Of a DNA stretch of 64,000 nt, positions 15,576-63,238 are shown piece by piece. The position numbers were made by a program, and so were the translations under genes. Each line of letters starts with the position of its first letter. Positions within the stretch are counted from its first letter, which is position 1. A model generated the notes under the pieces. It saw only the letters and a program-made list of their open reading frames with translations. It had not been told where the DNA came from and made no database searches. Origin of the DNA: Prochlorococcus sp. MIT 0603 (lineage in GTDB: Bacteria; Cyanobacteriota; Cyanobacteriia; PCC-6307; Cyanobiaceae); assembly GCF_000760215.1 (NCBI RefSeq), contig NZ_JNAW01000003.1, positions 62,001 through 126,000 of the forward strand, written 5' to 3'.

Positions 15576-16457
15576 ATGGAGATTCGCCGTCGTCCACCAA
15601 ACCCAAAAGTTCAAGTAGAAAATCTTGAATATGCAATTCCGCATAAAGACTCAGAACCGAAAAATATACTTGAAAAAATTGTTTGGGAAAAAGATAGGGA
15701 AGTAAGTATTGCTAGGGAAAGAGTACCGTTATCAGAGTTAATAAGAAAAACCGAAAACTTACCTCATCCCAAAGATTTTCTCAAGCACTTAAAAAATTCT
15801 GTTAAATCACCTGCTGTAATAGCTGAGATTAAAAAAGCAAGTCCAAGTAGAGGCATCCTTAGAAAAAACTTCTACCCAAGTGAAATAGCAATTGCCTATC
15901 AAAAAGGAGGGGCAACATGTCTATCAGTACTAACAGACAAAACTTTTTTTCAAGGAGGGTTCGATGTACTGAAAGAGGTTCGTAAAAATACAGATCTCCC
16001 CTTACTATGCAAGGACTTCATCATCCACCCTTATCAAATCTATCAAGCAAGAATGGCCGGGGCAGATGCAGTGTTATTGATTGCGGCTATACTTTCTGAT
16101 CAAGATCTGAGTTATTTAAAAAAAATTGCATATAACCTTGGCCTGTCAATATTAGTCGAGGTTCATGATGAAAAAGAATTGCAGAGGATTATGCGACTTG
16201 GTGACTTTCCTTTGATAGGTATCAATAATAGAAATTTAAAAACATTTGAGACTGACATATCTATTACTGAAGAATTATCTAAAAAATATTCTTCTATTTT
16301 CAAAGAACAGAATATCCTATTAGTAAGTGAATCAGGTTTATTTACACGGGAAGATTTAGAAAAAGTTTCTTCCTTTGGTGCTAAAGCTGTTTTAATTGGG
16401 GAGTCTCTGATAAAACAAAATGATCTCACTGCTGCTTTGAAAAACTTGATTGGATAG
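15576..16457 (+). CDS. trpC: Indole-3-glycerol phosphate synthase
   Basis: A TIM-barrel enzyme of tryptophan synthesis that cyclises CdRP to indole-3-glycerol phosphate. It shows [13 protein letters not shown] (catalytic Lys), [33 protein letters not shown] and LVSESG. The 293 residues include about 30 extra N-terminal residues ([13 protein letters not shown]), a feature of cyanobacterial TrpC. It follows lpd by 23 bases and may be co-transcribed with it. Confidence 0.96.
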
Positions 16458-16545
16458 TAATTTGAAAACCTTCTCTTTAAATAGTGTTTTTTCCAGAAAG
16501 AAATAACACAAATAGTTTGTTCATGAGGCAGACTTATCAAAGTTA

Positions 16546-17223
16546 ATGAATGAAATGCTTTTTAGCATCCTTACTGGTTTTATTGCTGGAGCTGTTCACG
16601 TAGTTGGAGGTCCTGACCATTTAATCGCAATGGCACCAGCTGCCTTAAAACAACCAAGATTGGCAATTAAGAATGGTTTTGCCTGGGGAGTGGGTCACTC
16701 GGCAGGCGTCCTAATCTTATCTTGCATAGGAATATTAGTTAAAGATCTAGTTCAGATAGAAAGGATGTCTGGTTTGGCTGAATTAAGTGTAGGGGTTTTT
16801 CTTTTAATAGTTGGCGTTTTTACTATCAAAGCTTCTTTAGGTCTAAATATACATACACATAATCACAATCATGGGGATGGTCAAAAGCACCAGCACCTTC
16901 ATATCCATCTAAGAGGAAGGGAAAAACATAATAAGCACTCACATACTTCAACAAGTTTAGGCTTGCTCCATGGCATGGCAGGAGCAAGTCATTTATTAGC
17001 AGCAATACCTGCTTTGGCATTACCTTCATTCGGAGCTTTCTTGTATTTAGTGTCTTATCTTTTAGGCTCTGTTTTAGCAATGGGAGCAGTGGTTTCTATA
17101 ATGTCTCTAGCAACATTAAAAGCAGGAAAAAAAGCCATACCTTTTCTTTTTGGATTGACAGGAACACTTTCAGTTTGTACAGGTTTTTTCTGGATTCATA
17201 AAACATCTATTTATATTTTTTGA
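16546..17223 (+). CDS. NicO-type nickel/cobalt transporter candidate next to Ni-SOD
   Basis: A membrane protein of 225 residues with about six hydrophobic segments. It has a HxxxxxDH-type motif in the first helix (H18, D24, H25 in HVVGGPDHLIAM), a second histidine in WGVGHSAG, and a cytoplasmic or periplasmic loop around residues 100-134 very rich in histidine (HTHNHNHGDG, HQHLHIH). A metal-binding His loop plus these motifs fits the NicO/RcnA-HupE-like nickel and cobalt transporters. Immediate convergence with the nickel superoxide dismutase genes supports nickel. Direction of transport (uptake or efflux) cannot be read from the sequence. One base separates its stop from that of the Ni-SOD protease. 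Confidence 0.82.
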   Translation: MNEMLFSILTGFIAGAVHVVGGPDHLIAMAPAALKQPRLAIKNGFAWGVGHSAGVLILSCIGILVKDLVQIERMSGLAELSVGVFLLIVGVFTIKASLGLNIHTHNHNHGDGQKHQHLHIHLRGREKHNKHSHTSTSLGLLHGMAGASHLLAAIPALALPSFGAFLYLVSYLLGSVLAMGAVVSIMSLATLKAGKKAIPFLFGLTGTLSVCTGFFWIHKTSIYIF

Positions 17224-32862: not shown

Positions 32863-33648
32863 ATGAGCATATATCAACTTGAGGTTATCAGCCTCTCACC
32901 AAAGTCTTTTGAAAGCATGATTGAGCTTGGCGTAATTGGACGTTCCTTAACTCGAGGAGTAGCCAAGCTAAATATATATAATCCTCGTGATTTCACTAAG
33001 GACGTCTATCACAAAGTAGATGATCAGCCATATGGTGGTGGAGTCGGCATGGTCCTAAAGCCGGAACCATTTTTCAATGCATATGATTCTATTCCTGTTT
33101 CACCAAAGAGAAGGGTCTTAATGATGACTCCACAAGGTCGGCGACTATCACAACAAGATTTATGGAGATGGGCTAGAACATATGAACAGCTTGTGTTTAT
33201 TTGTGGTCAATATGAAGGGTTTGATGAGCGAATCAGGAGCCTTGCCGATGAAGAGATTTCTCTAGGGGATTTTGTTTTAACTGGAGGTGAATTGGCAGCA
33301 ATGTCAATTATTAATGGGGTCTTACGTTTACTTCCTGGCACTATTGGCAGTCCAGAATCTCTGATTGAAGAGAGTCACTCAGACTTATTACTTGAACATC
33401 CACATTACACACGTCCACCAAATTACCGAAATCTTGAAGTCCCCAAAATATTAAGAAGCGGTAATCATTCAGCCATTAATAAATGGAGACAGGAAAAGAA
33501 AGAACTTCGAACAAAAGAACGCAGACCAGAGCTGTATGAACAATGGGTGGAAAAACAGGCAGTTCATAAGTCAACAATAGAACTTACTGGCTTTAATACA
33601 TTGCATTTGAGGATAGGGAACGAATACTATAATTACCCCGACTGGTAG
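32863..33648 (+). CDS. trmD: tRNA (guanine-N1-)-methyltransferase TrmD
   Basis: A SPOUT enzyme that makes m1G37. It has DDQPYGGGVGMVLKPEP, the SAM-binding knot with CGQYEGFDERI and LGDFVLTGGELAA, and the end motif EHPHYTRPP. The 261 residues include about 25 extra C-terminal residues of low similarity. It is the last core gene before the AT-rich insertion at 33.7-36.1 kb. Confidence 0.97.
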   Translation: MSIYQLEVISLSPKSFESMIELGVIGRSLTRGVAKLNIYNPRDFTKDVYHKVDDQPYGGGVGMVLKPEPFFNAYDSIPVSPKRRVLMMTPQGRRLSQQDLWRWARTYEQLVFICGQYEGFDERIRSLADEEISLGDFVLTGGELAAMSIINGVLRLLPGTIGSPESLIEESHSDLLLEHPHYTRPPNYRNLEVPKILRSGNHSAINKWRQEKKELRTKERRPELYEQWVEKQAVHKSTIELTGFNTLHLRIGNEYYNYPDW

Positions 33649-33732
33649 TGATAATAGAGTTTTATGATAAAGATATGAAAAAATGTCGAATTTAGTTGAA
33701 AATCTAATCAGACGATTTGTTTAGAGTTTAGT

Positions 33733-34599
33733 TTAAGTAATTTTTTTGCAATCAATAATAAAAGTGGATGCCAAGAAGAAACCTCTCCAATCTAATGGGT
33801 TTTCTATTTTCCATGAAATTTCTCTAAAATAATTTTTATCGAATGTTTCAAATAAAGGTGGTAGTGCGTGAAAATGATAAAAATATATACCTTCCACGGA
33901 CAAACCTAATTCTGCCATTTCATCAGCAATAGTTAAAGGATTATGAGGTATATGATTATAAACACCTTCTTCATCAATGTTTTTTTTAAGCCTTATTTTG
34001 TTTCTATCAGTAAAGTCTTTTGTTAAATCGTTGTATTTATCCTTCCATTCTTCTTTTAACTTTTCAACTTCATAAATTTCATCTAATAATTTTTTTGTAT
34101 AATTATTTAAAGTAACTAGATCAAATAACCTGTTTCTTAATGAAAAAATTAATCTACCATTCTCTTTTAATATTTTTTTCTGGTTTAAGAGTGTTTGATT
34201 AACATTTTTAGAATAATAAAAAGCTCCCATACCAAGTATACAATCAACGGAATTGTTTTTAACTACTTTTGGATTTTCAAAATCATCATGAAACACTAAA
34301 TCAGGTGAGAATTTGTTTTTTTTTAGATTTTCTTTTGCTTCTAAAACCATATTCTTTGCTTTATCATAACCAATAATGTCAAAACCTTTCTTTTTAATAT
34401 CTATAAGTGGCATTCCGGCACCACATCCAGCATCAATAATTTTATTTGGTTTATATTTATTTAAAAGTTCTAGAAAAATCTGCTCTCTTTTTACATTAGC
34501 AGGATACGAAATATCAAAATCTAATTTTTTATACATATCAGAATATTCTTTAACTTCATTTTCTCTATTGAAAAATTGAAAAGCGTCTGTTTCTTGCAT
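33733..34599 (-). CDS. SAM-dependent class I methyltransferase in an accessory insertion
   Basis: A Rossmann-fold methyltransferase of 288 residues. Motif I is IIDAGCGAGMPLIDIKKKGF (about residues 54-73), followed by DIIGYDKAKNMVLEAK and NSVDCILGMGAFYYS (motif IV). The residues after about 150 are charged and helical and end with a family-specific domain (LPPLFETFD...WRGFFLAST). The substrate is unknown. Codon use is strikingly AT-rich and Lys/Asn-rich compared with neighbours. It is paired with the DUF4910 gene upstream (21-base gap) and lies between core trmD and ispF, which suggests lateral gain; a sugar or secondary metabolite target is a guess. Confidence 0.8.
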   Translation of the reverse strand: MQETDAFQFFNRENEVKEYSDMYKKLDFDISYPANVKREQIFLELLNKYKPNKIIDAGCGAGMPLIDIKKKGFDIIGYDKAKNMVLEAKENLKKNKFSPDLVFHDDFENPKVVKNNSVDCILGMGAFYYSKNVNQTLLNQKKILKENGRLIFSLRNRLFDLVTLNNYTKKLLDEIYEVEKLKEEWKDKYNDLTKDFTDRNKIRLKKNIDEEGVYNHIPHNPLTIADEMAELGLSVEGIYFYHFHALPPLFETFDKNYFREISWKIENPLDWRGFFLASTFIIDCKKIT

Positions 34600-34620
34600 C
34601 TATTAATAGTTAATTCTCTA

Positions 34621-35910
34621 TTATTCTACTAGATTGTGGCTAAGCAGAATACTATTAATTTTTCTAACAGAAGCTAAATCTAAATCAATTAAATTAGAAA
34701 TCTTTTCTAATGAATTTGTTCCATCAGCATATTGAAGGAAATCCATATAATTTCTGGTTGATTTTTTTAAATTTTTAGTAGATAAATTAGAGTAGAGTCC
34801 TCTTTTACCCATTTGTGGTTCACACATCATTTTACATTTTGGATAAATTCTTTTTAATAATATTTCTATTGATTTTTTTGCAACATTAAATCCTCCAATA
34901 CAACCTTTTAAAGTAACAAGATTGAAATCATCTAATGAAGTATGGTATTCAGGAAATTCACCATATTTTGTCCTAAAAATTGACGAGATTTTCAAATCAA
35001 TACCAGGAGAATTATATTGTCTTTCATCTGAACCTCTTTCTAGGAATGAATACACTTTATAATTTTTTATTTTTAGTAAGTTATATGCTTCAATAATTGC
35101 TTCATCAGAAGGTGAGTTTTGATATTTAGAAAACATGCAAGAATGTTGCCTTTCGTCACCAATGCAAGTAAGGTTATAGCCTCCAATAACATTCTCTTTT
35201 AAATATTGAAGATTTTTACTCAAATAAGATATTGAACCAATTGTTTCTGGAATAAAAATAAATCTTAAAGTTTTGTTTAATTGTTTTTTCTTAAAATGAT
35301 TTATTAATCCCATAGATACTATAGGCCCAGATAACTCATTGTTTGCCATTGAAGGGTGGCATATATATGTAGAAATTAAAATTTCTTTTTTAGATTTACC
35401 TTTTAAAATATATTCGCCATAATTTAAATTGCCCTTTTTGTTTAGGCTTGAATTAATAACAACCTTAAATTTATCATTTGAAGAATATCTCTTATCTAAA
35501 ATTTTATAATCATTATAAGAAATACAAAAACCCCATCTTCTTTTATAATAAGAAGTTATATAAGGTATAGCTTCAGGTTGATCTTTTAAGAAATATAAAT
35601 GTTTAAATAATTCTTTTTTTGTAATATTTTTTTCAATAGGTATTGAGTATCCGACTAAATGTAAGTTATTTTCCTTGAAATCTATAATTTTATTATTATA
35701 TTTATCAAATATATAAGCATCTGTTACATTCCATTCTTCTGGAATATCCCAATCAAAAACTTTTGTCCCTGATTTGATTTTTTTAATTTCCATTTCAGGA
35801 AATTCTTTTTGTATAATATTTAGTGTTTTTCTTACACCATCACCTGTCAAACTTCTTGTAAGAGGGAAAAGTTTTGCTTTAGCAATATTGTAGTATTTTC
35901 TTATAGTCAT
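34621..35910 (-). CDS. DUF4910 (COG4310) aminopeptidase-like protein
   Basis: A 429-residue protein of the aminopeptidase-like family found in polysaccharide and secondary-metabolite clusters. It opens with LFPLTRSLTGDGVRKTL, a family hallmark; the M28-like metal region has STYICHPSMANNELSGP (about residues 194-210), RFIFIPETIGSISYL, and later LERGSDERQYNSPGI and PEYHTSLDDF, giving plausible His/Asp/Glu zinc ligands. The C-terminal 80 residues look like a winged helix. No signal peptide is visible. The biochemical role of this family is not established as far as I know. AT-rich composition matches the adjacent methyltransferase. Confidence 0.85.
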   Translation of the reverse strand: MTIRKYYNIAKAKLFPLTRSLTGDGVRKTLNIIQKEFPEMEIKKIKSGTKVFDWDIPEEWNVTDAYIFDKYNNKIIDFKENNLHLVGYSIPIEKNITKKELFKHLYFLKDQPEAIPYITSYYKRRWGFCISYNDYKILDKRYSSNDKFKVVINSSLNKKGNLNYGEYILKGKSKKEILISTYICHPSMANNELSGPIVSMGLINHFKKKQLNKTLRFIFIPETIGSISYLSKNLQYLKENVIGGYNLTCIGDERQHSCMFSKYQNSPSDEAIIEAYNLLKIKNYKVYSFLERGSDERQYNSPGIDLKISSIFRTKYGEFPEYHTSLDDFNLVTLKGCIGGFNVAKKSIEILLKRIYPKCKMMCEPQMGKRGLYSNLSTKNLKKSTRNYMDFLQYADGTNSLEKISNLIDLDLASVRKINSILLSHNLVE

Positions 35911-36210
35911 ATTAGAATTTTAATATATTAAATCAAACTTAACACGATACAAATAGTATAACTTGCTTCCAAATATTAATGAGAAAAAGCATATAGATAT
36001 ATATAATGAAGAAGTTTAATAATATTATAGAAGAGAGTTGTTAATCAAGTTTTGAAAAAATACTTAAATATAATTAAGTGTTTTGTAAAAAGCGGAGCTA
36101 AATTATTAGCTTGTGAAGGGGGTGAAAGTATCATTAAAGGTTAAATAAAATACACATTTGCGGTTACAGAATAGTTACAGGTTGCTTTATGATGCTCCAA
36201 AACACTTGAT
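35911..36210. other. AT-rich intergenic gap at the right edge of the trmD-ispF insertion
   Basis: Divergent spacer between the DUF4910 gene and ispF, expected to hold both promoters. The only frame that looks at all protein-like is a 30-codon plus-strand reading from a TTG at 36052 to a stop at 36144, ending GAKLLACEGGESIIKG. It has no clear ribosome binding site and may be a gene remnant or chance. I see no repeat, tRNA or integrase that would explain the insertion. Confidence 0.4.
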
Positions 36211-36711
36211 ATGACTAAAACCTTACCAAAGTTCCGTATTGGCAACGGTTATGACATTCATCGTTTAGTTCCAGAGAGGGATCTAATTGTTGGAGGTGTC
36301 AAACTTACTCATCCTGCTGGGCTAGGTCTTGATGGCCATAGTGATGCAGACGTACTTACACATGCTCTAATGGATGCAATGCTTGGGGCACTTTCTTTAG
36401 GTGATATTGGCAAATACTTTCCTCCAGATAATCCCAAGTGGAAAGGTGCTAATAGCTTGCAACTTTTAGCGAAAGTAAATGAACTCATCAAGAATGAAGG
36501 ATGGCAGATAGTAAATATTGATTCTGTTGTCATTGCAGAACGGCCAAAATTAAAGCCTTATATTGATTTGATGAGAAAAAATATTGCTACGAGTATTGGC
36601 TCAAATCCTAGTGATGTGGGTGTTAAGGCAACAACTAATGAATTACTAGGGCCTGAAGGGCGTGAAGAAGGAATTAGTAGCCATGCAATTGTTTTATTAG
36701 AAGAGATATGA
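36211..36711 (+). CDS. ispF: 2-C-methyl-D-erythritol 2,4-cyclodiphosphate synthase
   Basis: An MEP-pathway enzyme of isoprenoid synthesis. Metal ligands are in GYDIHRL (D15, H17) and the active-site loop [15 protein letters not shown] (His near residue 49); GDIGKYFPP and the C-terminal [18 protein letters not shown] are family signatures. 166 residues. It overlaps the next gene by 4 bases (ATGA), and larB follows with another 4-base overlap, forming a tight three-gene operon. Confidence 0.98.
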
Positions 36712-53153: not shown

Positions 53154-54791
53154 TTATATATTAGGAAATATTGTTTTTGTATCAAGCAATAACCAGCCTA
53201 GAATCTTGTCTTTATAGAGCTGAAGGTATTCATTTGTCAATTTAAGGTTAGTTGATGATAAAGAACCCTTTTCAAATAAAAGTATTATACTTGAACATTT
53301 TTCAATATCATTCTTATCAAATGGGTCTATAAAAGTGATGCTATTATCAGCTTTAAACAAGCTATAAGTATTATTAGGCCCTTTAATCATGCTGTCATCT
53401 GAAATAGATGCTATGCCAATCAATCCCTTTGAGGAGGCTTTTATCTTGTTAGATTCTATTATATTAGAAATAATTCTATCATTTAATTCAATATTATTCT
53501 TGTAAATGGTTTGCATAAATCTGTATGGAATCTCGTTATTTAACTCATAAAAATAGTAAAGTATACCTGAGTTTTTTTCTCTTAATATTAGAATTAAGCC
53601 CAAAATAGTTATTGAAGATAAGAATGTAATAACTGTCTCAATACTTCTCTTTGGTGATACTCTATAGTCACTTAATGTCGGTTCTGAAATAAGATCCCAT
53701 GGATCTTCCTGTCGTGCTTGTTCTAATAAAGCTATATCTAAATTAGTCTCAAGACTTTGCAAGAGAGCCTCATCTCGCAAAGCAATTCTTTTTAGCTCTC
53801 TAAATTCAGCAATTATTTTATTAGGCCTATCTAAAGAGACCCTTAGGCCTTCAACTCTACTCTTTAGCTCTTTTAAAACTGAAGAATTTGGTTTTAATTT
53901 TGAGGAAAGCTCCGCATAATCAGCTTCATATTGCTCTAGTAGTTTAAAGTGAGTTTTATATCTTCTCGCAGCTCCTGAACGTCCATTGTCACCAGCTCCA
54001 AAATTAGCTCCATAGGTTCCTAATCGGCCTTTTACTGCTGCCTTCTTACCTGACAAATCGTAAGTAACTATTCCTGGGCTTGGATCATCTGATCCAAATA
54101 ATCCATCAGCATTCCCCAACCCATGTTGTATAGAAAAGCTATTGAAAGTTTTCATTGATTTACTTGACTTCTCTTTAGATTGCTTAACTTGTAACTTTAA
54201 ATAATCAATTCCTTTATCTAACTTTTCCAATCGATCTTTCCTTGAATATGCTTGATACTTAGATGAGACCATTCTCAATGTTGATAATATCAATTGCTTA
54301 TCAGTATCCTTATAATTTACAGTTAAAACTTTTGTGCCCTTTTTTAAATCTATAGATAAATGATCGTCAATCCATTGTTTATAAGTAGGGTTATATTTAG
54401 TAAGTCCTTGACTATACTTTTTAGTTTTAACGCTTTTGTAAACAGGTTTAAGAACAGAAGGGCTCTCTAAAATAACTACCTGGGTTTTCAAATCATCGGA
54501 AGTATAACCTTGGAGGCTAACTTGTAATCCATCAACTCTATTTACATCTGCTAATGACCCTGCTTGTTCAGCTGGTGTATCTCTTTGGATAATTATTTGG
54601 AAGCTTCCTTCCCATACAGGCTTCCTAATATAAGTAGAAATAATTACTCCAAAAGTAATAACAAATGAAACGGGTAATATAGTTGATCTATTTCTTTTCA
54701 GCCTTTTATATACTTTACTTAAATCAATATCATCTTTATCATAATCATTATTTAAATAACTTTGATTGTTTGAATTGTCCATTTTTATCAT
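53154..54791 (-). CDS. Wzz/Wzc-like polysaccharide chain-length protein, kinase-like domain decayed
   Basis: Inner-membrane co-polymerase type. First membrane helix at about residues 39-57 (LPVSFVITFGVIISTYI), then a periplasmic Wzz domain with a long coiled-coil region (RLEKLDKGIDYLKLQVKQSK) and a second membrane helix near 410-430 (VITFLSSITILGLILIL) preceded by the Pro-rich PTLSDYRVSPKRSI. The 110-residue C-terminus has the end of a BY-kinase-like fold (SIILLFEKGSLSSTNLK, KDKILGWLLLD) but no Walker A, A' or B motif. 545 residues. It follows the wza-like gene by 9 bases. Confidence 0.85.
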   Translation of the reverse strand: MIKMDNSNNQSYLNNDYDKDDIDLSKVYKRLKRNRSTILPVSFVITFGVIISTYIRKPVWEGSFQIIIQRDTPAEQAGSLADVNRVDGLQVSLQGYTSDDLKTQVVILESPSVLKPVYKSVKTKKYSQGLTKYNPTYKQWIDDHLSIDLKKGTKVLTVNYKDTDKQLILSTLRMVSSKYQAYSRKDRLEKLDKGIDYLKLQVKQSKEKSSKSMKTFNSFSIQHGLGNADGLFGSDDPSPGIVTYDLSGKKAAVKGRLGTYGANFGAGDNGRSGAARRYKTHFKLLEQYEADYAELSSKLKPNSSVLKELKSRVEGLRVSLDRPNKIIAEFRELKRIALRDEALLQSLETNLDIALLEQARQEDPWDLISEPTLSDYRVSPKRSIETVITFLSSITILGLILILREKNSGILYYFYELNNEIPYRFMQTIYKNNIELNDRIISNIIESNKIKASSKGLIGIASISDDSMIKGPNNTYSLFKADNSITFIDPFDKNDIEKCSSIILLFEKGSLSSTNLKLTNEYLQLYKDKILGWLLLDTKTIFPNI

Positions 54792-54800
54792 GATTAATAA

Positions 54801-55958
54801 TTAGTCGAATATATTGTAAAGAGCATAGCCTCCAAGGACTGGTCTTGAGATTTCGCCAATAACCTCTGAAGCAGTTCCTAAAGCAGATTTTCTAACATTA
54901 ATAACATCACCACTCATTAATATTGGGTTTTTAGCTGTATTAATGGGGGCCTTTGCATCATACCTGAATTGATTTCTCAATGTAGTTCCATCATCATTAA
55001 ACCTTATAAACTCTATATTTCCAGTCATCAGTTTTTTCCCTCCACTTGAATATATAGCTTGTATAAGTCCTGATCCTTGTCTAATTTTTGATGCTCCAGC
55101 TCTTTCAACATTTCCAGTTATAAAAACAGTTATATATTCAGGGCTCAAATTGGTTTTATTTGCTTTAAGTATTTGATCTTTTAATACCTTTTCTGATCTG
55201 GAAATGATTATAGTATCTCCATCAAAAATTCTTATATTCTGAGATTGATCTCCATTTGTAAGAAGCTTCAATAAATTTATAGTTGTTTTAATTTTACCAC
55301 CACCACTGCTCCTAGCATTGTTTCTTATAATTGAAATTTCTGAAAGGTTTGCATTTGGTGTGACACCGCTAGAAATCCTTATTGCATCAAATATTCGTGG
55401 TGCATAGTCTACACTCGCTATTGAACTGGCAGCTTGGTCAATTGTTTGAGCTTGAATCCTTTCCTCCTGACTGAAACCACCTAAAGAACTAGTAGGAGTT
55501 CCAAGATTTCCTGTATTACCTCCTTTAAAGGTATACAAGCCAGGTCTTTTGACCTCTCCTGAAATATAAACTCTCATAGGCCTGTATCTGACTACCTGTA
55601 TTTCTATCTTTGGATCGATTATGAACTCATCATAACTTTGGAGCAATGCGTTTCTAAGCTCGTTAACTGTTAGCCCCTCGGCCTGCAAACTCCCAACTTC
55701 AGGAAGATACATTAGGCCATCGGGACCAACTGAATAACTAGCATTAAATTGAGGCAACCCAATAAATGATATAAACAATACATCGCCAGAACCAAGTATA
55801 TATTGGGGCTTATCGATAAATAGCTTAGAATTATTTAAATCAGTATTGGCATCATTATTTGTATTTGCATAAAGAATTCCCCTTGAAGTAATACCAAGTA
55901 AAAGTACTAACAAAAGGGCTACTCGATTAAATAAAAGCAATTTTGAAAGCTTAATCAT
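54801..55958 (-). CDS. Wza-like polysaccharide export protein (no lipobox)
   Basis: An outer-membrane export channel protein of 385 residues. A signal peptide (residues about 1-31, NRVALLLVLLLGITSRGI) is followed by the Poly_export domain (YILGSGDVLFISFIGLP, VGPDGLMYLPEVGSLQAEGLT) and SLBB-type segments (RPMRVYISGEVKRPGLYTF, VFITGNVERAGASKIRQG). No Cys occurs near the end of the signal peptide, so it would not be a lipoprotein, unlike E. coli Wza. It is upstream of the Wzc-like gene, in the same operon. Confidence 0.88.
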   Translation of the reverse strand: MIKLSKLLLFNRVALLLVLLLGITSRGILYANTNNDANTDLNNSKLFIDKPQYILGSGDVLFISFIGLPQFNASYSVGPDGLMYLPEVGSLQAEGLTVNELRNALLQSYDEFIIDPKIEIQVVRYRPMRVYISGEVKRPGLYTFKGGNTGNLGTPTSSLGGFSQEERIQAQTIDQAASSIASVDYAPRIFDAIRISSGVTPNANLSEISIIRNNARSSGGGKIKTTINLLKLLTNGDQSQNIRIFDGDTIIISRSEKVLKDQILKANKTNLSPEYITVFITGNVERAGASKIRQGSGLIQAIYSSGGKKLMTGNIEFIRFNDDGTTLRNQFRYDAKAPINTAKNPILMSGDVINVRKSALGTASEVIGEISRPVLGGYALYNIFD

Positions 55959-56567
55959 AAAAAAATAGTATTAATAAGATTAATCTGGGAGTACGTTTTC
56001 AAAACAATCAGCTTCAGGAACGAATATAACATATAGGATTTCTCTTGGGAGCACTTGTTCTTTTTTGCAAGTATTAGGAAAATTCTATATAAATTTTTGC
56101 GGCTACAAGCCAACGTTTTAATTTTATTAGAAAAGGCAGAAAAAGTACTGGAGTCCTTTACAACATTTATTTTGTAGTCTATTGCAGGAGCTTAAAATTG
56201 AGTTAATTAGTAACTTAGTTGGAATTGAAAAACAGTAAAGAATTAAATATAATTATACTAATCAAAGGCCTAAATGGCTGACTTGAAAAAGTTATTAACA
56301 GCTCACATCAAAAGACTTAAAGGCTTAAGATAAAGACTGTTTAACGTAATTTGGACATAATTTATTTTGAGTTTTTGAAAGATGGAACTTATCAAAATAA
56401 AAATCACTTGTCTTAATGATGTTTTATATAATGACCTCTTCTCTGGTCAGATGTAGTATATTCTATAGTAATTCGAAATCTATTTGACACATTAACAAGT
56501 GACAGTTAGTTCAAAATGGTCATCAAACCAAAGTGAATCTTTCTTTATAGTCACTTAAAAGCATCCT
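55959..56567. other. Non-coding stretch between the polysaccharide export operon and tRNA-Ala
   Basis: About 610 bases with no convincing gene on either strand. The longest plausible frame (ATG near 56381, 24 codons) is low in information. The left end must carry the promoter of the wza-like gene; the right end carries the tRNA-Ala promoter. No direct repeat of the tRNA end was noticed. The unusual length for this compact genome suggests a decayed gene or an untranslated leader RNA, which cannot be told apart here. Confidence 0.5.
56546..56551 (+). promoter_or_regulatory. Possible -10 box for tRNA-Ala
   Basis: TATAGT lies 17 bases before the tRNA-Ala 5' end, so a start site near 56557-56559 would give a short leader. 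No good -35 is present at the right spacing; a TTGACA near 56483 is too far away. Weak, based on position and one hexamer only. Confidence 0.3.
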
Positions 56568-56640
56568 GGGGCCATAGCTCAGCTGGTAGAGCACCTGCAT
56601 GGCATGCAGGGGGTCAGCGGTTCGAGTCCGCTTGGCTCCA
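56568..56640 (+). tRNA. trnA: tRNA-Ala (GGC)
   Basis: Acceptor stem GGGGCCA with TGGCTCC (one G-T pair), discriminator A, D loop AGCTGGTAGAGC, anticodon arm CCTGC-ATGGCAT-GCAGG giving anticodon GGC, and T arm GTTCGAGTC. CCA is not encoded. It stands alone, between the polysaccharide export operon and an AT-rich surface-sugar island, in a large gene-poor region. Confidence 0.97.
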
Positions 56641-57036
56641 TAGAAATTTAAAGCTATGATTAGCTATTTGATTAGGCTAGTTAGAGAAGAATTGATTAGG
56701 CTTATTTTCGAGTTAAGTTCTAAGCTATTTTGATATAGTAATTACTCTAATAGCATTGGGAAATAGGAAGTATCAAAAGCCATAGTAATTGCCATGAGAA
56801 TTAAAAGATATTTAAAATGTCTAGCATAGTATTACTAGTTATAGTTAAAATAAACAAATCATGTATATTGCTTATCGCTGAAGATCAATGTACTCTTCTA
56901 TACTGCCGAATTGCAACTTAAATGAATCAAATAAAGCTTAATAAATGCAATTACTGGATTATCTGCTCAAGATCCGAAAGTCTACGTACATCGAATACTC
57001 CCACTAAATTAATCACTCTATTAATTAGACTAATTT
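56641..57036. other. Gene-free AT-rich stretch downstream of tRNA-Ala
   Basis: About 400 bases without a supported gene. No integrase, no insertion sequence and no obvious repeat of the tRNA-Ala 3' end is seen. It probably holds the promoter of the ABC exporter gene. Together with the gap on the other side, the tRNA sits in 1.08 kb of noncoding DNA, one of the least dense parts of the window. Confidence 0.5.
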
Positions 57037-58806
57037 TTGAAAGAAGTTTCGCAGAGTTATTTTACAATAGATAAAATCATGGATATACTAATAAAGTTAT
57101 TAACAATTTATAAGCATTTCTTTTTTGCAGGAAATATTAAAAGGAATTTAAGACTCTGCTTCTATGCTTTTATATTGTTACCTTTTCAATCACTGCTAGA
57201 AGTCTACACAATTTCGTTATTAGCTTCAATATTAACAGGAAGTGCTTTGACAATATTGATAATACCAAAAATATTTTCTTTTGAATTTATCAACGTGGGC
57301 ATTAATCTCTTAGTTAGTTCTATAACTTTGTATATTCTACGTTACAAGAATCTCTCAATACAACACATAGTATCAAGAGATGTAGTCATCAATATGCAAG
57401 TAAAAATATATGAAAAAATGGTAAGCAACGGGAAAGAACCTAATCATTTAGGGAAAGGAGATTCTGATAGTAATTCCTTAAATTTAGACAGCAATTTAAA
57501 TAATGTATTGCAAAATGAATTATTTATATTCTATAGAGACATTTGCATTCCTACTCTAAGATTATTCTCAAACTTTATAATTCTCTTAGCTGTTGTATTT
57601 TATTGCATATACTCTTCAGGAATAATCTTCCTACCAATCTTCTCATCATCTTTGATTTATTACTTTATATACTACAGTTTAAAGGCAAGAAACACAATAA
57701 ATACATCAAGTAATTTTATCAAAAGTCAATCTAATAATACTGGTATTATTAGATATATTTTCTCTAATATACAGAGTTTTATATACTCAAATATATCTAC
57801 TAAATTAACAACGAAGAGCATTAGAGAGTTTAATAATCAGCTTAACAATTATTATATTTTGGGTAAAGGGGTTTTCTCTACTATATACCAACTAGAGCTT
57901 TTATTTATTTTTATAGTGATAATAGTTTTATTTTGGAGCAAAACGTTAAATTATTCATTAGGTGTTTCTTCAATTCTAGTTGCTCTAATTGGTCTTCAGA
58001 AGACATTCCGTACATCACAACAAATTGCAAATTCCTTCACTGTTTTCCTTAATAATTCCAAGACTATAGATAATATTTTTGAGCTTTTATTTAAAAGTCA
58101 GTTTGATAATCTTAAGACAAACTATTATACATCAAATCAATTTATAAGGTTCGATAAGAGAAAAAGTATATATACTCTTGAAGGCAGACTAAGCTTAGAT
58201 TTCCTTAGTAAAAAGAAATCATTAGAAACGAGAATCTACCAAAGTGATTTTGGATTCAATTTTACATCTGATCAGCCTGTTCATATATCAGCTCCATCTG
58301 GTTTTGGGAAAACATTGATATTAAAGAGATTATTAAATTCACCTGTTAATGTATTGAATAGAGAATTAAAAGGCGAGACTAGATTAGTTAATCAAAAAAA
58401 TATACTTCTTAAAGATATTGCCTTTTATTTACCTCAGTCTCAGCAATTACCACCTTTAGTTATTTCAGATTTCCTACCTGGGTTAGAAAAGAGTCACATT
58501 GATGATTTGTTGAATTTGTTTAAATTTCCCAGAAGTATTATTGAAAACTTTAGGATAAAAGATTACAACAAATTTTTAATAAACTCACTGTCATTAAGTG
58601 GTGGAGAGGTGCAAAGATTATGGATAATAAAAGCAATATCAGAAAAACCAAAAATTTTAATATTAGATGAGCCATTCTCAGCACTTAATTCTGAGATGAT
58701 CCATGATATTTCTAAATTATTACCAACATTACTACCTCCATCAACAATAGTAATTATAACTTCCCATGTTAAACTGAGTGAGTGCTACAAGGTCATTAAA
58801 CTTTAA
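57037..58806 (+). CDS. Fused ABC exporter (permease plus ATPase), accessory
   Basis: A 589-residue half-transporter of exporter type. The first 320 residues hold about five to six membrane helices (CFYAFILLPFQSLLEVYTISL, FINVGINLLVSSITLYIL, LFSNFIILLAVVFYCIYSSG, LLFIFIVIIVLFWSK). The ATPase domain has Walker A APSGFGKT (first Gly of the usual GxSGxGKT is Ala), Q-loop FYLPQSQQLPP, signature LSGGEVQR, Walker B ILILDEPFSAL and switch His ITSHVK. The start is uncertain: TTG at 57037 or ATG at 57079. Codon use is very AT-rich. Given the neighbours, a surface-sugar exporter is likely, but the substrate is unknown. Confidence 0.8.
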   Translation: MKEVSQSYFTIDKIMDILIKLLTIYKHFFFAGNIKRNLRLCFYAFILLPFQSLLEVYTISLLASILTGSALTILIIPKIFSFEFINVGINLLVSSITLYILRYKNLSIQHIVSRDVVINMQVKIYEKMVSNGKEPNHLGKGDSDSNSLNLDSNLNNVLQNELFIFYRDICIPTLRLFSNFIILLAVVFYCIYSSGIIFLPIFSSSLIYYFIYYSLKARNTINTSSNFIKSQSNNTGIIRYIFSNIQSFIYSNISTKLTTKSIREFNNQLNNYYILGKGVFSTIYQLELLFIFIVIIVLFWSKTLNYSLGVSSILVALIGLQKTFRTSQQIANSFTVFLNNSKTIDNIFELLFKSQFDNLKTNYYTSNQFIRFDKRKSIYTLEGRLSLDFLSKKKSLETRIYQSDFGFNFTSDQPVHISAPSGFGKTLILKRLLNSPVNVLNRELKGETRLVNQKNILLKDIAFYLPQSQQLPPLVISDFLPGLEKSHIDDLLNLFKFPRSIIENFRIKDYNKFLINSLSLSGGEVQRLWIIKAISEKPKILILDEPFSALNSEMIHDISKLLPTLLPPSTIVIITSHVKLSECYKVIKL

Positions 58807-58880
58807 ATCTATTTTATTATTAATATGCTTAGTAACTGATAGAGGAGTATGAACAATTAGATATAAATCAGCTTTAATTT

Positions 58881-59633
58881 TCACCACATAAAACCCTTTT
58901 CTATTAGAATGCAGTTTCTATTAATTTCCTGAGATCCAGTTATTTCTTTCATGGTAAAAATAATTTCTTCTGTAGTTAGATTTACTAAGTCATTATAATT
59001 ATACATTTCTATAAGTTTCTTTAATTTGGTTAAATCATCTGATGTATCTAAACAATATCTTAGACCCTTAGCTTGCCAATAATTAGGGCATGGAATACTC
59101 TCCCTACCACACAACTTTTCCAATGCAAATATAACATGTTCTTTATCATTTTTATTATTATCAAGTAAGGAATTAGCCTTTCTCAAATATTCTGAGGATA
59201 TTACGCTTACAATTGTTCCATTAGGCCAATTGAGATCATAATAACAACTTCCGAAAACAATTTTATTTTTCATTACATAATCTATAGCGTAATTAATGAC
59301 GTCATGTCCTACTAGAGGGTTATCTCCTGTAACCCTAACTATCCATTGAAATTCTTGTAATTTCCTTGAAATATCATCAAATCTAAGAAGGACATTATCC
59401 TCTTCTTCATTTGTGAAAGTTTCTATATCCAAACTATTGGCAATATTAATTATTTTTTGATTCGATAGAGTTGATCCAGTCGAAACAACTACTTTATCAA
59501 GGCTTTTTGATCTACTTACCCTATCAATACAAACCTCTAATGCTGTCTTGCCTTTAATTAGTTCAAAGATAGATTTCCCTGGAAGTCGTTTTGATGAATA
59601 TCTTGCTTGAATTATACAAAGAATTTTCACCAT
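58881..59633 (-). CDS. SpsF-type nucleotidyltransferase (CMP-sugar synthetase-like)
   Basis: A 250-residue protein of the SpsF/NeuA-like nucleotidyltransferase family (COG1861). The N-terminal nucleotide motif is IIQARYSSKRLPGKSI, followed by DKVVVSTG, VRVTGDNPLV (metal-binding Asp) and ENNVLLRF-type segments. It would activate a sugar acid, probably with CTP, from the family and the NeuB neighbour. Its start overlaps the SDR gene stop by 7 bases, so it is the last gene of the operon. The substrate cannot be named. Confidence 0.8.
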   Translation of the reverse strand: MVKILCIIQARYSSKRLPGKSIFELIKGKTALEVCIDRVSRSKSLDKVVVSTGSTLSNQKIINIANSLDIETFTNEEEDNVLLRFDDISRKLQEFQWIVRVTGDNPLVGHDVINYAIDYVMKNKIVFGSCYYDLNWPNGTIVSVISSEYLRKANSLLDNNKNDKEHVIFALEKLCGRESIPCPNYWQAKGLRYCLDTSDDLTKLKKLIEMYNYNDLVNLTTEEIIFTMKEITGSQEINRNCILIEKGFMW

Positions 59634-60361
59634 ATACTCCAGCCCCCATCAATAACCAATTCACTACCATTCATATAAGTATTACGCTTATCCAGTAGAA
59701 GCTCTACAGCAGGTAGAAGCTCCTCTAATTTCATCATTCTATTAATTGGAGTTAAAGAGGAGAATTTTTTAATGAACTCAGTTTCATGATTATTAAGTAC
59801 TCCATGTGGAGCAATTGTATTTGTTCTGATTCCGAACTGAATCCAATTTGCTGCTAAGTATTTTGTCAGCATATGAACTCCACCTTTACTTGCTGAGTAG
59901 CAAGCAGGGTTACCCATACTATTGTTCTTATAAAGATTGGGGTTAGAAGATATTCGCCCATAAGTAGATCCAAAGTTTACTATAGAGATATCTGAAAACT
60001 CAGGTCTCCTATAATTCTTTATGCCCAAACACATATAATATAATCCATTCAAGTTAGCATCAATTACTGATTTCCATAATTCAATATCATCCTCACTTTC
60101 TTTTGATAAAAAGCCTTTTGGTTTATATTGATGACAATTTATTAAAGCTGTCAAATCAATCTCCTTCTTAGATATTCTTTCATAAAGTATTTCAACCTCT
60201 TTATCATTACTAATATCGACTGAGTTATAATAAAATCTTTCATCTTGTACAGAAGAGTAGTCTGAGATATCAACTCCTATAACAAACTCTTTCTTAGCCA
60301 ATAATGATTTAACTAAGAAAGATCCAATAAGACCATTTGATCCAGTTACGATTATAGCCAT
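59627..60361 (-). CDS. Short-chain dehydrogenase/reductase in sugar-acid cluster
   Basis: A classical SDR of 244 residues: NAD-binding GSNGLIGSFLVKSL at the N-terminus, catalytic Ser in STYGR and the YxxxK pair in CYSASKGGVHML, with the end motif NGSELVIDGGWSIW. It overlaps the Gfo/Idh gene by 10 bases and the SpsF-type gene by 7. The arrangement resembles the PtmA-type SDR genes found in Campylobacter flagellin-sugar loci, from memory. The substrate is inferred to be a sugar or sugar nucleotide. Confidence 0.83.
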   Translation of the reverse strand: MAIIVTGSNGLIGSFLVKSLLAKKEFVIGVDISDYSSVQDERFYYNSVDISNDKEVEILYERISKKEIDLTALINCHQYKPKGFLSKESEDDIELWKSVIDANLNGLYYMCLGIKNYRRPEFSDISIVNFGSTYGRISSNPNLYKNNSMGNPACYSASKGGVHMLTKYLAANWIQFGIRTNTIAPHGVLNNHETEFIKKFSSLTPINRMMKLEELLPAVELLLDKRNTYMNGSELVIDGGWSIW

Positions 60362-61266
60362 TCTTTAATTCTTTTACAAAATCTTGCAATCACTATACCA
60401 TCTGATCCTCTTGCTGTGATTTGCTTTCCTCCTTTTAATATTTCATCCCACATACTTTCATATGTGTTTGACCATGATTCAAAGTCTTCAAAATTATCTA
60501 AATTAAAAATATAAGGGATTTTATTATTGGTTTTAATAAGCTCTATAAACCTTTTTCTTATAGGAGAAACTAATGAAAGTGAAATAAATGCTTTAATTTC
60601 TGATTTACTATGGATTAGATTTATTTCAATACTGTCTTCTATTTTTGAGGACTTGGGGTTCAACAGCTCTTTCTTATTAAGAATAAACCAGTCATCCTGA
60701 GAAGTTTTTGTTATGTATAAAAGCAAATCTATTTCATGACAACTTATATTTAAAGCACCCCCATGATCAGGATCAATTACATAATTTGTTAGGGACCTCT
60801 CTCCATACCAATTAAAAGGATTATCATGGAAAAATAGTTTTATTGATTGTATTTCCGAATATGAATCTTCTATTATATCTTTGATTTTTTGAACATTTGG
60901 ATTATATCTTACATTAAATAAAGTATAGAATTTTCTTTTTCTAAATTTATCAAGAATATTTATATCATATTCATTCCAACTTAATAAAGGTTTCTCTACA
61001 GCTATTAATGAATTATCTCTCGTTGCTATGTAGCTTATTTCAAGATCGACCTTGCGATTTTCAGGTGATCCTGCTATTACTGATAAGTCAAAATAATTAT
61101 GATACTTTTTGGGTAGGAAATCCATATAAGATAAAAATATAAGGTTTTTAATTGTTCCATGATGTTTACGAGTTCGACTTAAATGAATGCAATGAATGCC
61201 TTTAGATTGAAGTATATTAGAGTGCCTTTGTGCTATAGAGCCTGTGCCTATTATTAAAGCTTTCAT
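60352..61266 (-). CDS. Gfo/Idh/MocA family oxidoreductase in sugar-acid cluster
   Basis: An NAD(P)-dependent sugar dehydrogenase of 304 residues. The Rossmann motif is GTGSIAQRHSNIL (about residues 7-19), AVEKPLLSW is the family's EKP motif, and DPDHGGALNISCHEIDLLLY provides the conserved catalytic His region. The C-terminal beta-sheet domain follows. It is co-directional with the SDR (10-base overlap) and 110 bases downstream of the GT2 gene. The substrate is unknown; the cluster suggests an amino-sugar or its nucleotide. Confidence 0.84.
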   Translation of the reverse strand: MKALIIGTGSIAQRHSNILQSKGIHCIHLSRTRKHHGTIKNLIFLSYMDFLPKKYHNYFDLSVIAGSPENRKVDLEISYIATRDNSLIAVEKPLLSWNEYDINILDKFRKRKFYTLFNVRYNPNVQKIKDIIEDSYSEIQSIKLFFHDNPFNWYGERSLTNYVIDPDHGGALNISCHEIDLLLYITKTSQDDWFILNKKELLNPKSSKIEDSIEINLIHSKSEIKAFISLSLVSPIRKRFIELIKTNNKIPYIFNLDNFEDFESWSNTYESMWDEILKGGKQITARGSDGIVIARFCKRIKEWL

Positions 61267-61375
61267 ATAATTAAATTTATAACTAGTGACTTAAAACTTT
61301 TAATCACAATAAATCTTTATCTACTAACAAGATAATTATATACATCAAATCTATACATGACTAATCAAGCATATA

Positions 61376-62026
61376 CTAATCATGACTTTTATCATAAGTT
61401 CGTTTTTGCTCATACTCAGATGTTAACGACATAGAATGTTGTCTATACCTATACAAGGGTAGAGGTAAATGTAGGGAGTTTATACCATTAGCATTTAATC
61501 TTGATGCAAATTCTCTCTCTTCTCCAATACGAAGAGATTCATATAAACCATGCCTAGCAAAAACACTTTTTCTAACTAATCTTGCGCATGCTATAGGTTT
61601 TTCGCAGGCATTAATCCTTGATGACTTTTGATCATTATCATCTACATACACATAATCTGAATATACAATGTCAATATCAGGTCTTAATTCTAATGCTACT
61701 GTAAGCGTTTGAATTGTTAAAGGGTGAATATAGTCATCTGAGTCTAATAGAAAAATATATCTACCTCTTGCCATTGATATTGCTTTATTACGAGCAAAGC
61801 CAACACCAACATTTAAAGTATTGGTTATAATCTTTATCAACTTATTATCACTGTACAGAAAACCTAGTATTTCATTAGTTGAATCTGTAGATGCATCATC
61901 GCAAACCACAACTTCATAGTTAATTTCTGTTTCTTGCATAATACAAGAATTAATACATGCCTCTATATATGACTGCGAATTGTAAGCAGGTATTACTATT
62001 GAAACGTGTGGATGCATATTTTTCAT
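61376..62026 (-). CDS. Family 2 glycosyltransferase
   Basis: A GT-A fold transferase of 216 residues: VSIVIPAYNSQSYIEACINS at the N-terminus, CDDASTDST (nucleotide Asp), NVGVGFARNKAISMARGRYI and the metal motif LDSDDYIHP (DxD). After about residue 140 the acceptor part (VRKSVFARHGLYESLRIGEE) is short. It may be a compact GT2; a truncation cannot be excluded, as many are 250-330 residues. TAATG overlap with the neuB stop means translational coupling. Confidence 0.85.
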   Translation of the reverse strand: MKNMHPHVSIVIPAYNSQSYIEACINSCIMQETEINYEVVVCDDASTDSTNEILGFLYSDNKLIKIITNTLNVGVGFARNKAISMARGRYIFLLDSDDYIHPLTIQTLTVALELRPDIDIVYSDYVYVDDNDQKSSRINACEKPIACARLVRKSVFARHGLYESLRIGEEREFASRLNANGINSLHLPLPLYRYRQHSMSLTSEYEQKRTYDKSHD

Positions 62027-63063
62027 TATTCTATAACTTCCATTGATAAAGAATCACCCTTAATCAGATCTACAATTGTACTCTTACCAAGAACATTATC
62101 GATATGTATTGGTAATAAAGAGTTTGTAGGTCTAAGAATAGCTATGTGGTGGCCCTCTAATCTAGTTCCTGCTGGAATTGCTTTAGCTGCATATAGGCCT
62201 CGACGAGCATGTAATCTGGCCATCTCTTGACTCTTTAAATCAGGAATTCCCTCTCCAAGCAACTTAATTAATTTCTTTTCCCTTATTCTTAACTCTAATA
62301 AATCTTCTGCTGTCATTGCGTGGTAATGGTCATTTCCTGCCTTTATTCGTGAGGTAGTAAAATGCTTTTCTATAAATACTGCTCCCGAAGTAATAGCAGC
62401 CAAAATACAGTCAAAGCCTTCAGGTACTGGAACGTGGCAAGAATAACCAATACTAATATTCTGATCGGCAAAATGATCCTTTAGAGTTGATACCATTGAA
62501 ATATTTGCATTATCAATTTCACATGGATAGTTAAGAACACAATGAAGTACCGTTAAATGTATCTTTGTATTTTTTATTATATGATTAACTGTGTAATCTA
62601 TTTCATCAATTGTACTTGCACCTGTAGATAAAACTATAGGTTTATTTTTTTCTATTATATGATCTATTAAAGGCAAATTTGTAATATCTGATGAGCTGAT
62701 CTTATGAAAAGGTACATAAGGGTCAAAGGTATCAATTAAATCTGGATCAAAGCAGGTAACAACAAAGTCCAAGTGATATTTTTTACATGCTTCAATCAAA
62801 GGTTTGTAAAAGTCAAGATCATTTTGCTCAAGTCGTTTAAATAAAGAGTATTGAGTTCTTTCTGACTCTTTATCTGTATCCCAATAAGCTGGAGAATGTT
62901 GTGCTGCTAATTTATCTGCTTCATAACATTGAAATTTGACACCACTTGCTCCTGCAATGGAAGCGGTCTTAATCATCTCCAGAGCCAGGTCTAATGACCC
63001 TCCATGATTAACTCCAATCTCAGCTAGCATATAAGCAGGTTTCATACAAGTGATATCTAGCAT
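62026..63063 (-). CDS. neuB: Nonulosonic acid synthase, NeuB/SpsE family
   Basis: Condenses a hexosamine derivative with PEP to give a nine-carbon sugar acid (sialic-, legionaminic- or pseudaminic-type). The TIM barrel (about residues 10-270) shows AEIGVNHGGSLDLALEMI, GVKFQCYEADKL, KISSSDITNLPLIDHI, VLSTGAST and IGYSCHVP; the C-terminal 65 residues are a SAF (antifreeze-like) domain starting ARRGLYAAKAIPAGTRL. 345 residues. Which sugar is made cannot be told from the synthase alone. The GT2 gene follows directly. Confidence 0.9.
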   Translation of the reverse strand: MLDITCMKPAYMLAEIGVNHGGSLDLALEMIKTASIAGASGVKFQCYEADKLAAQHSPAYWDTDKESERTQYSLFKRLEQNDLDFYKPLIEACKKYHLDFVVTCFDPDLIDTFDPYVPFHKISSSDITNLPLIDHIIEKNKPIVLSTGASTIDEIDYTVNHIIKNTKIHLTVLHCVLNYPCEIDNANISMVSTLKDHFADQNISIGYSCHVPVPEGFDCILAAITSGAVFIEKHFTTSRIKAGNDHYHAMTAEDLLELRIREKKLIKLLGEGIPDLKSQEMARLHARRGLYAAKAIPAGTRLEGHHIAILRPTNSLLPIHIDNVLGKSTIVDLIKGDSLSMEVIE

Positions 63064-63238
63064 TAATCAATTTACATTAAAATAGTGTATTTGATCAATT
63101 GAGTTGTTTAATAGTTACAGACGTAAGAACTTTATTCTAAAAATATAAAAGTGATCCCTTAGTAAACATCTGGTTAGTTGTAAAGAGAATATTACTTAGT
63201 TGAGTATAAAATTCTAATCAAGATAGAGAGTGAAAATG

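What the first reader, a model, noticed from the sequence alone, without database searches (positions are those of the whole stretch)
33733..35910. DUF4910 plus methyltransferase pair inserted between trmD and ispF
The two genes are only 21 bases apart, share strand and extreme AT-rich codon use, and break the core order trmD-ispF. DUF4910 proteins usually sit in polysaccharide or natural-product clusters, and their substrate is not known. A two-gene module of this type, not attached to a polysaccharide cluster, is a compact setting in which to find the role of DUF4910.
Basis: partly seen in the sequence, partly recalled or inferred. Interest (0 to 1): 0.6.

Follow-up and report, generated by a model that had tools for sequence, protein, structure and literature searches.

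The report
SAR11 sugar-tailoring gene pair in Prochlorococcus
Two AT-rich genes wedged between two housekeeping genes of a Prochlorococcus-type cyanobacterium are a compact cassette taken from SAR11, another hugely abundant ocean bacterium, and they probably customise a sialic-acid-like sugar on the cell surface.

Summary
A methyltransferase (33733-34599) and a DUF4910-DUF2172-HTH_47 protein (34621-35910), both minus strand, 21 bp apart and about 25% GC, separate trmD from ispF. The same ordered pair occurs in at least eight SAR11 (Pelagibacteraceae) genomes: up to 86% protein identity, and 86.6% DNA identity over 2,256 bp, running 68 bp past the coding region to within 16 bp of the trmD stop. 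The window's DUF4910 nests inside a SAR11 clade (99/95), apart from other picocyanobacterial copies, so the pair is a cross-phylum transfer. In SAR11 it is itself mobile: in nonulosonic-acid (NulO) gene clusters, against tmRNA or near tRNA-Ser, and once between two copies of the tmRNA 3' hairpin beside an integrase. Function: DUF4910 genes recur beside NeuB, CMP-sugar synthetase and acyltransferase genes, two are fused to aminotransferase or cytidylyltransferase, and published Cj1295 is needed for an N-acyl variant of pseudaminic acid. Best reading: a portable NulO-tailoring cassette (N-acyl editing plus methylation) acting on sugars made elsewhere; the host has two NeuB loci, one in this window. 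The trmD-ispF gap is an accessory-gene spot in sister genomes. Transfer is near certain; the chemistry is inferred.

The parts
33733..34599 (-). Class I SAM-dependent methyltransferase, second gene of the pair
   Evidence: Pfam Methyltransf_31/11/23; 59-84% aa identity to the partner gene in SAR11 loci; dN/dS 0.13-0.20 against SAR11 copies; Foldseek hits only broad class I methyltransferases.
34621..35910 (-). DUF4910 + DUF2172 + HTH_47 protein (M28-like zinc fold, Cj1295/CA_C2195 kind), first gene of the pair
   Evidence: Pfam; phmmer to 3k9t 1.2e-90 over residues 6-405; H185 and H323 match zinc ligands H189/H324; N191 replaces D195 as in nearly all marine homologues; nested in a SAR11 clade.
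34600..34620 (-). 21-bp gap between the two genes (about 0-21 bp in most SAR11 copies)
33665..33732 (-). Non-coding SAR11-derived tail after the methyltransferase stop; the junction with host DNA falls within the 16 bp next to trmD's stop (33649-33664)
   Evidence: Local alignment to L018 downstream DNA, score 62, 0 of 500 dinucleotide shuffles as high.
35911..36210 (.). 300 bp between the DUF4910 start and ispF; origin unassigned, presumably holds the promoters of both the pair and ispF
   Evidence: No significant similarity to SAR11 upstream DNA or to sister trmD-ispF gaps; promoter-like hits not above shuffles.
32863..33648 (+). trmD, host flank (not part of the insert)
   Evidence: Pfam tRNA_m1G_MT
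36211..36711 (+). ispF, host flank (not part of the insert)
   Evidence: Pfam YgbB
58881..63063 (-). Host NulO-type gene run that may supply the substrate in trans: cytidylyltransferase 58881-59633, SDR, oxidoreductase, glycosyltransferase, NeuB 62026-63063
   Evidence: Pfam CTP_transf_3 5e-20 and NeuB 3e-58; ORFs.

Best explanation
The pair is a portable two-gene cassette acquired from SAR11 that alters a nonulosonic acid (NulO: pseudaminic/legionaminic/sialic-acid-like sugar) destined for the cell surface. SHOWN: the DNA segment is shared with SAR11 and nests within SAR11 diversity; in SAR11 the pair sits in at least six different genomic contexts, including tmRNA/tRNA sites, once between duplicated tmRNA ends next to a tyrosine recombinase; both genes are under purifying selection; DUF4910 genes recur with and are fused to NulO-type genes; the host has two NeuB loci elsewhere. 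INFERRED: the DUF4910 protein acts on the N-acyl group of the NulO (removes the acetyl group, or exchanges it for another acyl group, at a single-zinc site), and the methyltransferase then methylates the exposed amine or the new acyl/sugar hydroxyl. The product would be a modified surface sugar, changing recognition by phages or grazers. It works in trans on host-made sugar, which is why it can live outside a sugar cluster.
For: Transfer: same pair in SAR11, 86.6% DNA identity over 2,256 bp, shared non-coding tail, SAR11-like GC3, tree placement 99/95 inside SAR11, methyltransferase in no other of 300 same-family genomes. Mobility in SAR11: tmRNA 3' hairpin core GCGTTCTGTTGCCAGGTGCCC at 8666, 11057 and 17230 of L018, the first two bracketing the pair, integrase 16129-17127 beside the third; the pair ends a few bases from the tmRNA gene in L021 and L092 and 78 bp from tRNA-Ser in L023; a sulfotransferase replaces the methyltransferase at the same ppdK site in L091. 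Function: NeuB within the fetched stretch of 7 of 9 picocyanobacterial and 15 of 35 non-pair SAR11 DUF4910 loci; DegT-DUF4910 and cytidylyltransferase-DUF4910 fusions; aminoglycoside N-acetyltransferase-like, ACP, KAS III and split transketolase neighbours; virus-borne DUF4910 next to NeuB and CMP-sugar synthetase genes; Cj1295 required for 5-N-(di-O-methylglyceroyl) pseudaminic acid (PMC3068675); the structure paper argues for sugar transacylation (PMC4000134). Host NeuB loci.
Against: No biochemical data on this pair. Only 2 of 8 SAR11 pair loci hold NeuB within the fetched stretch. NeuB is common in SAR11 anyway (283 of 397 genomes), so genome-level co-occurrence (56 of 65 with DUF4910 vs 227 of 332 without, Fisher p = 0.004) is modest and confounded by genome completeness. 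The zinc ligand D195 of 3k9t is Asn here, so catalysis may differ. The methyltransferase's substrate class is not resolved by sequence or fold. No att-like repeat or integrase is left at the trmD-ispF site, so the route into the cyanobacterium is unknown.
Confidence: 0.7

Rival explanations
1. The DUF4910 protein is a true metallopeptidase and the pair matures or modifies a peptide (natural-product or protein processing).
For: M28-like fold with zinc site (PMC4000134); named 'putative peptidase' in the PDB.
Against: Both catalytic acids of M28 are replaced in the family (Ser191, Pro225; PMC4000134), and the same holds here (S187, P221). No recurrent peptide-substrate gene lies next to the pair in the SAR11 loci. 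The Cj1295 phenotype is on the glycan, not the polypeptide.
Confidence: 0.08
2. Same acyl-editing-plus-methylation chemistry, but on another amino sugar (for example a UDP-linked lipopolysaccharide or capsule sugar), not a NulO.
For: Many SAR11 DUF4910 loci are mixed glycan clusters without NeuB in the fetched stretch; two pair-bearing SAR11 genomes lack a NeuB hit, though at about 0.9 Mb in contigs they may be incomplete.
Against: Fusions with NulO-type aminotransferase/cytidylyltransferase domains, NeuB adjacency, Cj1295.
Confidence: 0.2
3. The pair is an intracellular anti-phage defence cassette, as its island-like mobility would suggest.
For: Moves as a compact unit at tmRNA/tRNA sites; the methyltransferase gives a PADLOC hit to mad2 (54 bits).
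Against: The PADLOC hit covers only 143 positions of a 492-position model, the region of the SAM-binding fold; DUF4910 has no PADLOC hit. DUF4910 associates with sugar genes, not defence genes.
Confidence: 0.05
4. Assembly chimera or SAR11 contamination in the cyanobacterial genome.
For: SAR11 is a likely contaminant of marine genomes; the insert is SAR11-like in sequence and composition.
Against: The insert is a single 2.3-kb segment with host core genes on both sides of one 190-kb contig, without N; reported contamination 0.09%; clear synonymous divergence (0.3-1.2) from every SAR11 copy compared; the same gap carries other inserts in three sister genomes.
Confidence: 0.04

Closest known systems
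Campylobacter jejuni Cj1295 (DUF2172/M28-like; required for di-O-methylglyceroyl pseudaminic acid on flagellin; PMC3068675)
   Same: Described as similar length (435 aa) and domain type, no signal peptide; the family usually lies in sugar clusters, some with sialic acid synthases; genetically tied to an N-acyl variant that carries O-methyl groups.
   Different: Cj1295 lies inside a complete flagellin glycosylation locus and is phase-variable. Here the gene lies alone with one methyltransferase and the glycan is unknown. Cj1295 itself was not aligned here.
Clostridium acetobutylicum CA_C2195 (PDB 3k9t; PMC4000134)
   Same: Same three-domain architecture; zinc ligands H189/H324 and the S191/P225 substitutions conserved.
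   Different: The D195 zinc ligand is Asn (N191) here and E192 follows; the C. acetobutylicum gene lies in a cluster with a NeuB-type synthase, ACP and N-acetyltransferases.
Tycheposon-type cargo (Prochlorococcus) and tRNA/tmRNA-integrated islands
   Same: In SAR11 the pair behaves as small cargo bounded by tmRNA ends beside a tyrosine recombinase.
   Different: The cyanobacterial insertion is not at a tRNA and has no recombinase or repeat; membership not claimed.
phnCDEubiE operon exchanged between HIMB59 and Pelagibacterales (PMC12416821)
   Same: Small accessory operon exchanged between distant plankton lineages, next to tRNA/recombinase genes in the recipient.
   Different: That exchange is between two orders of plankton bacteria once both called SAR11; this one crosses phyla and is older (87% DNA identity).

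Membership tests
DUF4910/DUF2172/HTH_47 (CA_C2195, Cj1295) family | Three-domain architecture with DUF2172 inserted in DUF4910 and C-terminal HTH_47 | tested here: met
   Pfam scores 280.9, 110.9 and 66.9 bits, all above cut-off
DUF4910/DUF2172/HTH_47 (CA_C2195, Cj1295) family | Single-zinc site His189, Asp195, His324 | tested here: inconclusive
   H185 and H323 conserved; Asp195 is Asn191, followed by Glu192, here and in most marine homologues
DUF4910/DUF2172/HTH_47 (CA_C2195, Cj1295) family | Lies in a sugar/NulO gene cluster | tested here: inconclusive
   Not at the window site; yes in L019, L022 and many relatives
M28 aminopeptidase | Catalytic Asp and Glu of the co-catalytic two-zinc site | tested here: not met
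   Ser187 and Pro221 at the two positions (reference positions from PMC4000134)
Cj1295 function (N-acyl variant of NulO) | Gene required for a NulO N-acyl modification | not testable with these tools
   Needs mutant and mass spectrometry
Horizontally acquired SAR11 cassette | Phylogenetic nesting in the donor clade, DNA-level identity beyond the genes, foreign composition | tested here: met
Tycheposon / tRNA-integrated mobile element (at the window site) | Insertion at a tRNA/tmRNA with flanking repeats and a recombinase | tested here: not met
   Nearest tRNA is over 20 kb away; no tmRNA core copy and no convincing flanking repeat
Known anti-phage defence system | Match to curated defence models across both genes | tested here: not met
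   Only a partial methyltransferase-domain hit

The most novel reading that the evidence does not exclude
SAR11 and Prochlorococcus, two of the commonest cell types of the surface ocean, exchange small surface-sugar tailoring cassettes through a shared vector (satellite, phage or vesicle), so that cells of different phyla come to display the same modified sugar and share phage or grazer recognition.
Probability: 0.2. Interest if true: 0.8.

Novelty: new variant of a known kind. Interest (0 to 1): 0.58.

Why it matters
It gives a clear SAR11-to-picocyanobacterium gene transfer at about 87% DNA identity, with one junction placed to within 16 bp. It also reduces the DUF4910 problem to a two-gene module acting away from its sugar cluster: two genes, one expected glycan mass shift, in a culturable type of host. 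If the reading is right, the pair tests directly what DUF4910 does in nonulosonic-acid chemistry, open since the 2010 Cj1295 mutant and the 2014 structure, and it shows surface-sugar decoration as freely moving cargo in the ocean.

Tried and rejected
Viral vector: the exact pair is not in IMG/VR or INPHARED; only distant DUF4910 genes occur in viral contigs (36-50%). tmRNA att core in the window: none up to 6 mismatches (shorter core at chance level). Flanking repeats at trmD-ispF: nothing beyond AT-rich chance matches. Promoter/terminator scan: not above shuffles. AlphaFold of the DUF4910 protein with 7 sequences: pLDDT 37, discarded. Methyltransferase model: pLDDT 60; Foldseek gives many class I enzymes (CmoM, MitM, RebM) at 8-15% identity, so no substrate call. 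An apparent 1,183-aa DUF4910 fusion in L111 is an N run and was dropped, and L121, whose stretch also holds 2,500 N, was not used; L112 and L122 contain no X and stand. Genome-level DUF4910/NeuB co-occurrence: weak support only.

Full report
OBSERVATION. The two ORFs are as described: a 288-aa methyltransferase at 33733-34599 and a 429-aa DUF4910-DUF2172-HTH_47 protein at 34621-35910, both minus, 21 bp apart, between trmD and ispF, both plus. GC is 0.22-0.27 across the pair against about 0.38 around it. GC3 is 0.15/0.17 against 0.25-0.32 in host core genes. The genome (1.75 Mb, 7 contigs) has one DUF4910 copy.

RARITY IN RELATIVES. DUF4910 occurs in 16 of 300 same-family genomes including this one; the others are at 30-50% identity. 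The methyltransferase (E up to 1e-15) is in none but its own. trmD and ispF are adjacent, or fused, in seven same-genus genomes (fusion confirmed by Pfam in L078). In three others the gap carries different genes: an FkbM-type methyltransferase (L074), a class I methyltransferase with an outer-membrane barrel protein (L075), and an unassigned 218-aa protein (L076). The gap is thus a small accessory-gene spot that has received methyltransferases more than once.

SOURCE. A genome scan with the methyltransferase found seven loci, all Pelagibacteraceae (SAR11), at 59-84% identity. Six carry DUF4910 directly upstream at 65-86%; the seventh contig is cut there. Two more SAR11 genomes, G687 and G360, hold the pair. 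The best DNA match, L018, is 86.6% over 2,256 bp and continues 68 bp past the methyltransferase stop (0 of 500 shuffles as good), ending 16 bp from the trmD stop. A 50-row maximum-likelihood tree puts the window protein in a set of five rows, the other four SAR11 (99/95), within a 29-row clade that is otherwise all SAR11 (100/100), away from the other picocyanobacterial copies. dN/dS is 0.10-0.23, so both genes are kept by selection. Direction SAR11 to cyanobacterium follows from the nesting, the composition and the diversity on the SAR11 side.

MOBILITY IN SAR11. The pair lies in NulO/glycan clusters (L019, L022; sugar-type genes also in L101), between ppdK and tmRNA (L018, L092), against tmRNA with other left neighbours (L021), beside tRNA-Ser (L023), and at two further sites (L020, L024). 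In L018 the 21-bp core GCGTTCTGTTGCCAGGTGCCC of the tmRNA 3' hairpin occurs three times without mismatch: before DUF4910, after the methyltransferase, and in the tmRNA, where a tyrosine recombinase gene sits. Several other SAR11 loci show two to four copies near tmRNA (L094, L095, L113), so this is an accretion hotspot. In L091, at the same ppdK site, a sulfotransferase replaces the methyltransferase: the second gene appears exchangeable. No such repeat is present at trmD-ispF; the entry route there is unknown.

FUNCTION. The family structure (3k9t) has one zinc, lacks both M28 catalytic acids, and was proposed to act in sugar modification (PMC4000134). The window protein keeps the two His ligands and the Ser/Pro substitutions but has Asn for the Asp ligand, as do nearly all marine homologues. 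Cj1295 of C. jejuni is required for the di-O-methylglyceroyl form of pseudaminic acid, and its authors proposed cleavage of the C5 acetamido group (PMC3068675). In the loci fetched here DUF4910 recurs with NeuB, cytidylyltransferases, DegT aminotransferases and aminoglycoside-N-acetyltransferase-like proteins. It is fused to a DegT aminotransferase in L112 and to a cytidylyltransferase in L122. In some loci it adjoins KAS III, split transketolase and a small carrier-like protein (ACP supported by Pfam in L108 only, the others by their sequence and position). Viral contigs carry DUF4910 next to NeuB and CMP-sugar synthetase genes, beside phage-type genes. The host has two NeuB loci, one at 62026-63063 of this window with a cytidylyltransferase at 58881-59633, the other on contig C4 with a cytidylyltransferase and a carbamoyltransferase.

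MODEL. From these I infer N-acyl editing of a NulO by DUF4910, followed by methylation of the amine, acyl group or sugar, on a substrate made elsewhere in the cell. Steps shown: transfer, mobility in SAR11, selection, sugar-gene linkage of the family, presence of host NeuB. Steps inferred: substrate, reaction, order, surface display and ecological effect.

LIMITS. The NulO link for the pair-bearing loci themselves is thinner (2 of 8 with NeuB in the fetched stretch) than for the family. NeuB is frequent in SAR11 (283 of 397), so co-occurrence is weak evidence. The methyltransferase's substrate is unresolved. The organism's name was not verified.

Noticed in passing
L018 8666/11057/17230; L095 15442/16482/17157/17479; L113 3097/3602/4476; L094 4864/7081: Tandem copies of the 21-bp tmRNA 3' hairpin core next to SAR11 ssrA: an integration hotspot with accreted short cassettes.
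   Followed up: partly
L078 4781-6004 (G010); also G093: trmD and ispF fused into one 407-aa ORF with both Pfam domains in a sister genome; the same appears in G093 (413-aa frame).
   Followed up: partly
L074 7343-8131; L075 6987-7673 and 8250-9203; L076 4762-5418: Other accessory genes, two of them methyltransferases, in the trmD-ispF gap of sister genomes.
   Followed up: partly
L112 537-3050; L122 8337-10319: DUF4910 fused to DegT aminotransferase and to cytidylyltransferase in SAR11: direct fusion links to NulO-type enzymes.
   Followed up: yes
L144, L145, L146, L147, L151 (IMG/VR contigs): Phage-like contigs with DUF4910, several beside NeuB and CMP-sugar synthetase genes: virus-borne NulO-type synthesis genes.
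   Followed up: partly
L123 9945-12529; L102 3130-4434 and 9233-10633: Two DUF4910 genes in one locus; the second in L123 has lost the motif His residues (CPSLGNN, EYDTH), perhaps a non-catalytic partner.
   Followed up: no
L091 551-1507 vs L018/L092: At the same ppdK site a sulfotransferase takes the place of the methyltransferase after DUF4910: exchangeable second gene.
   Followed up: partly
window 53154-64000: Capsule/NulO island in the same window (Wzc-like, Wza-like, ABC transporter, cytidylyltransferase, NeuB) around tRNA-Ala 56567-56641.
   Followed up: partly
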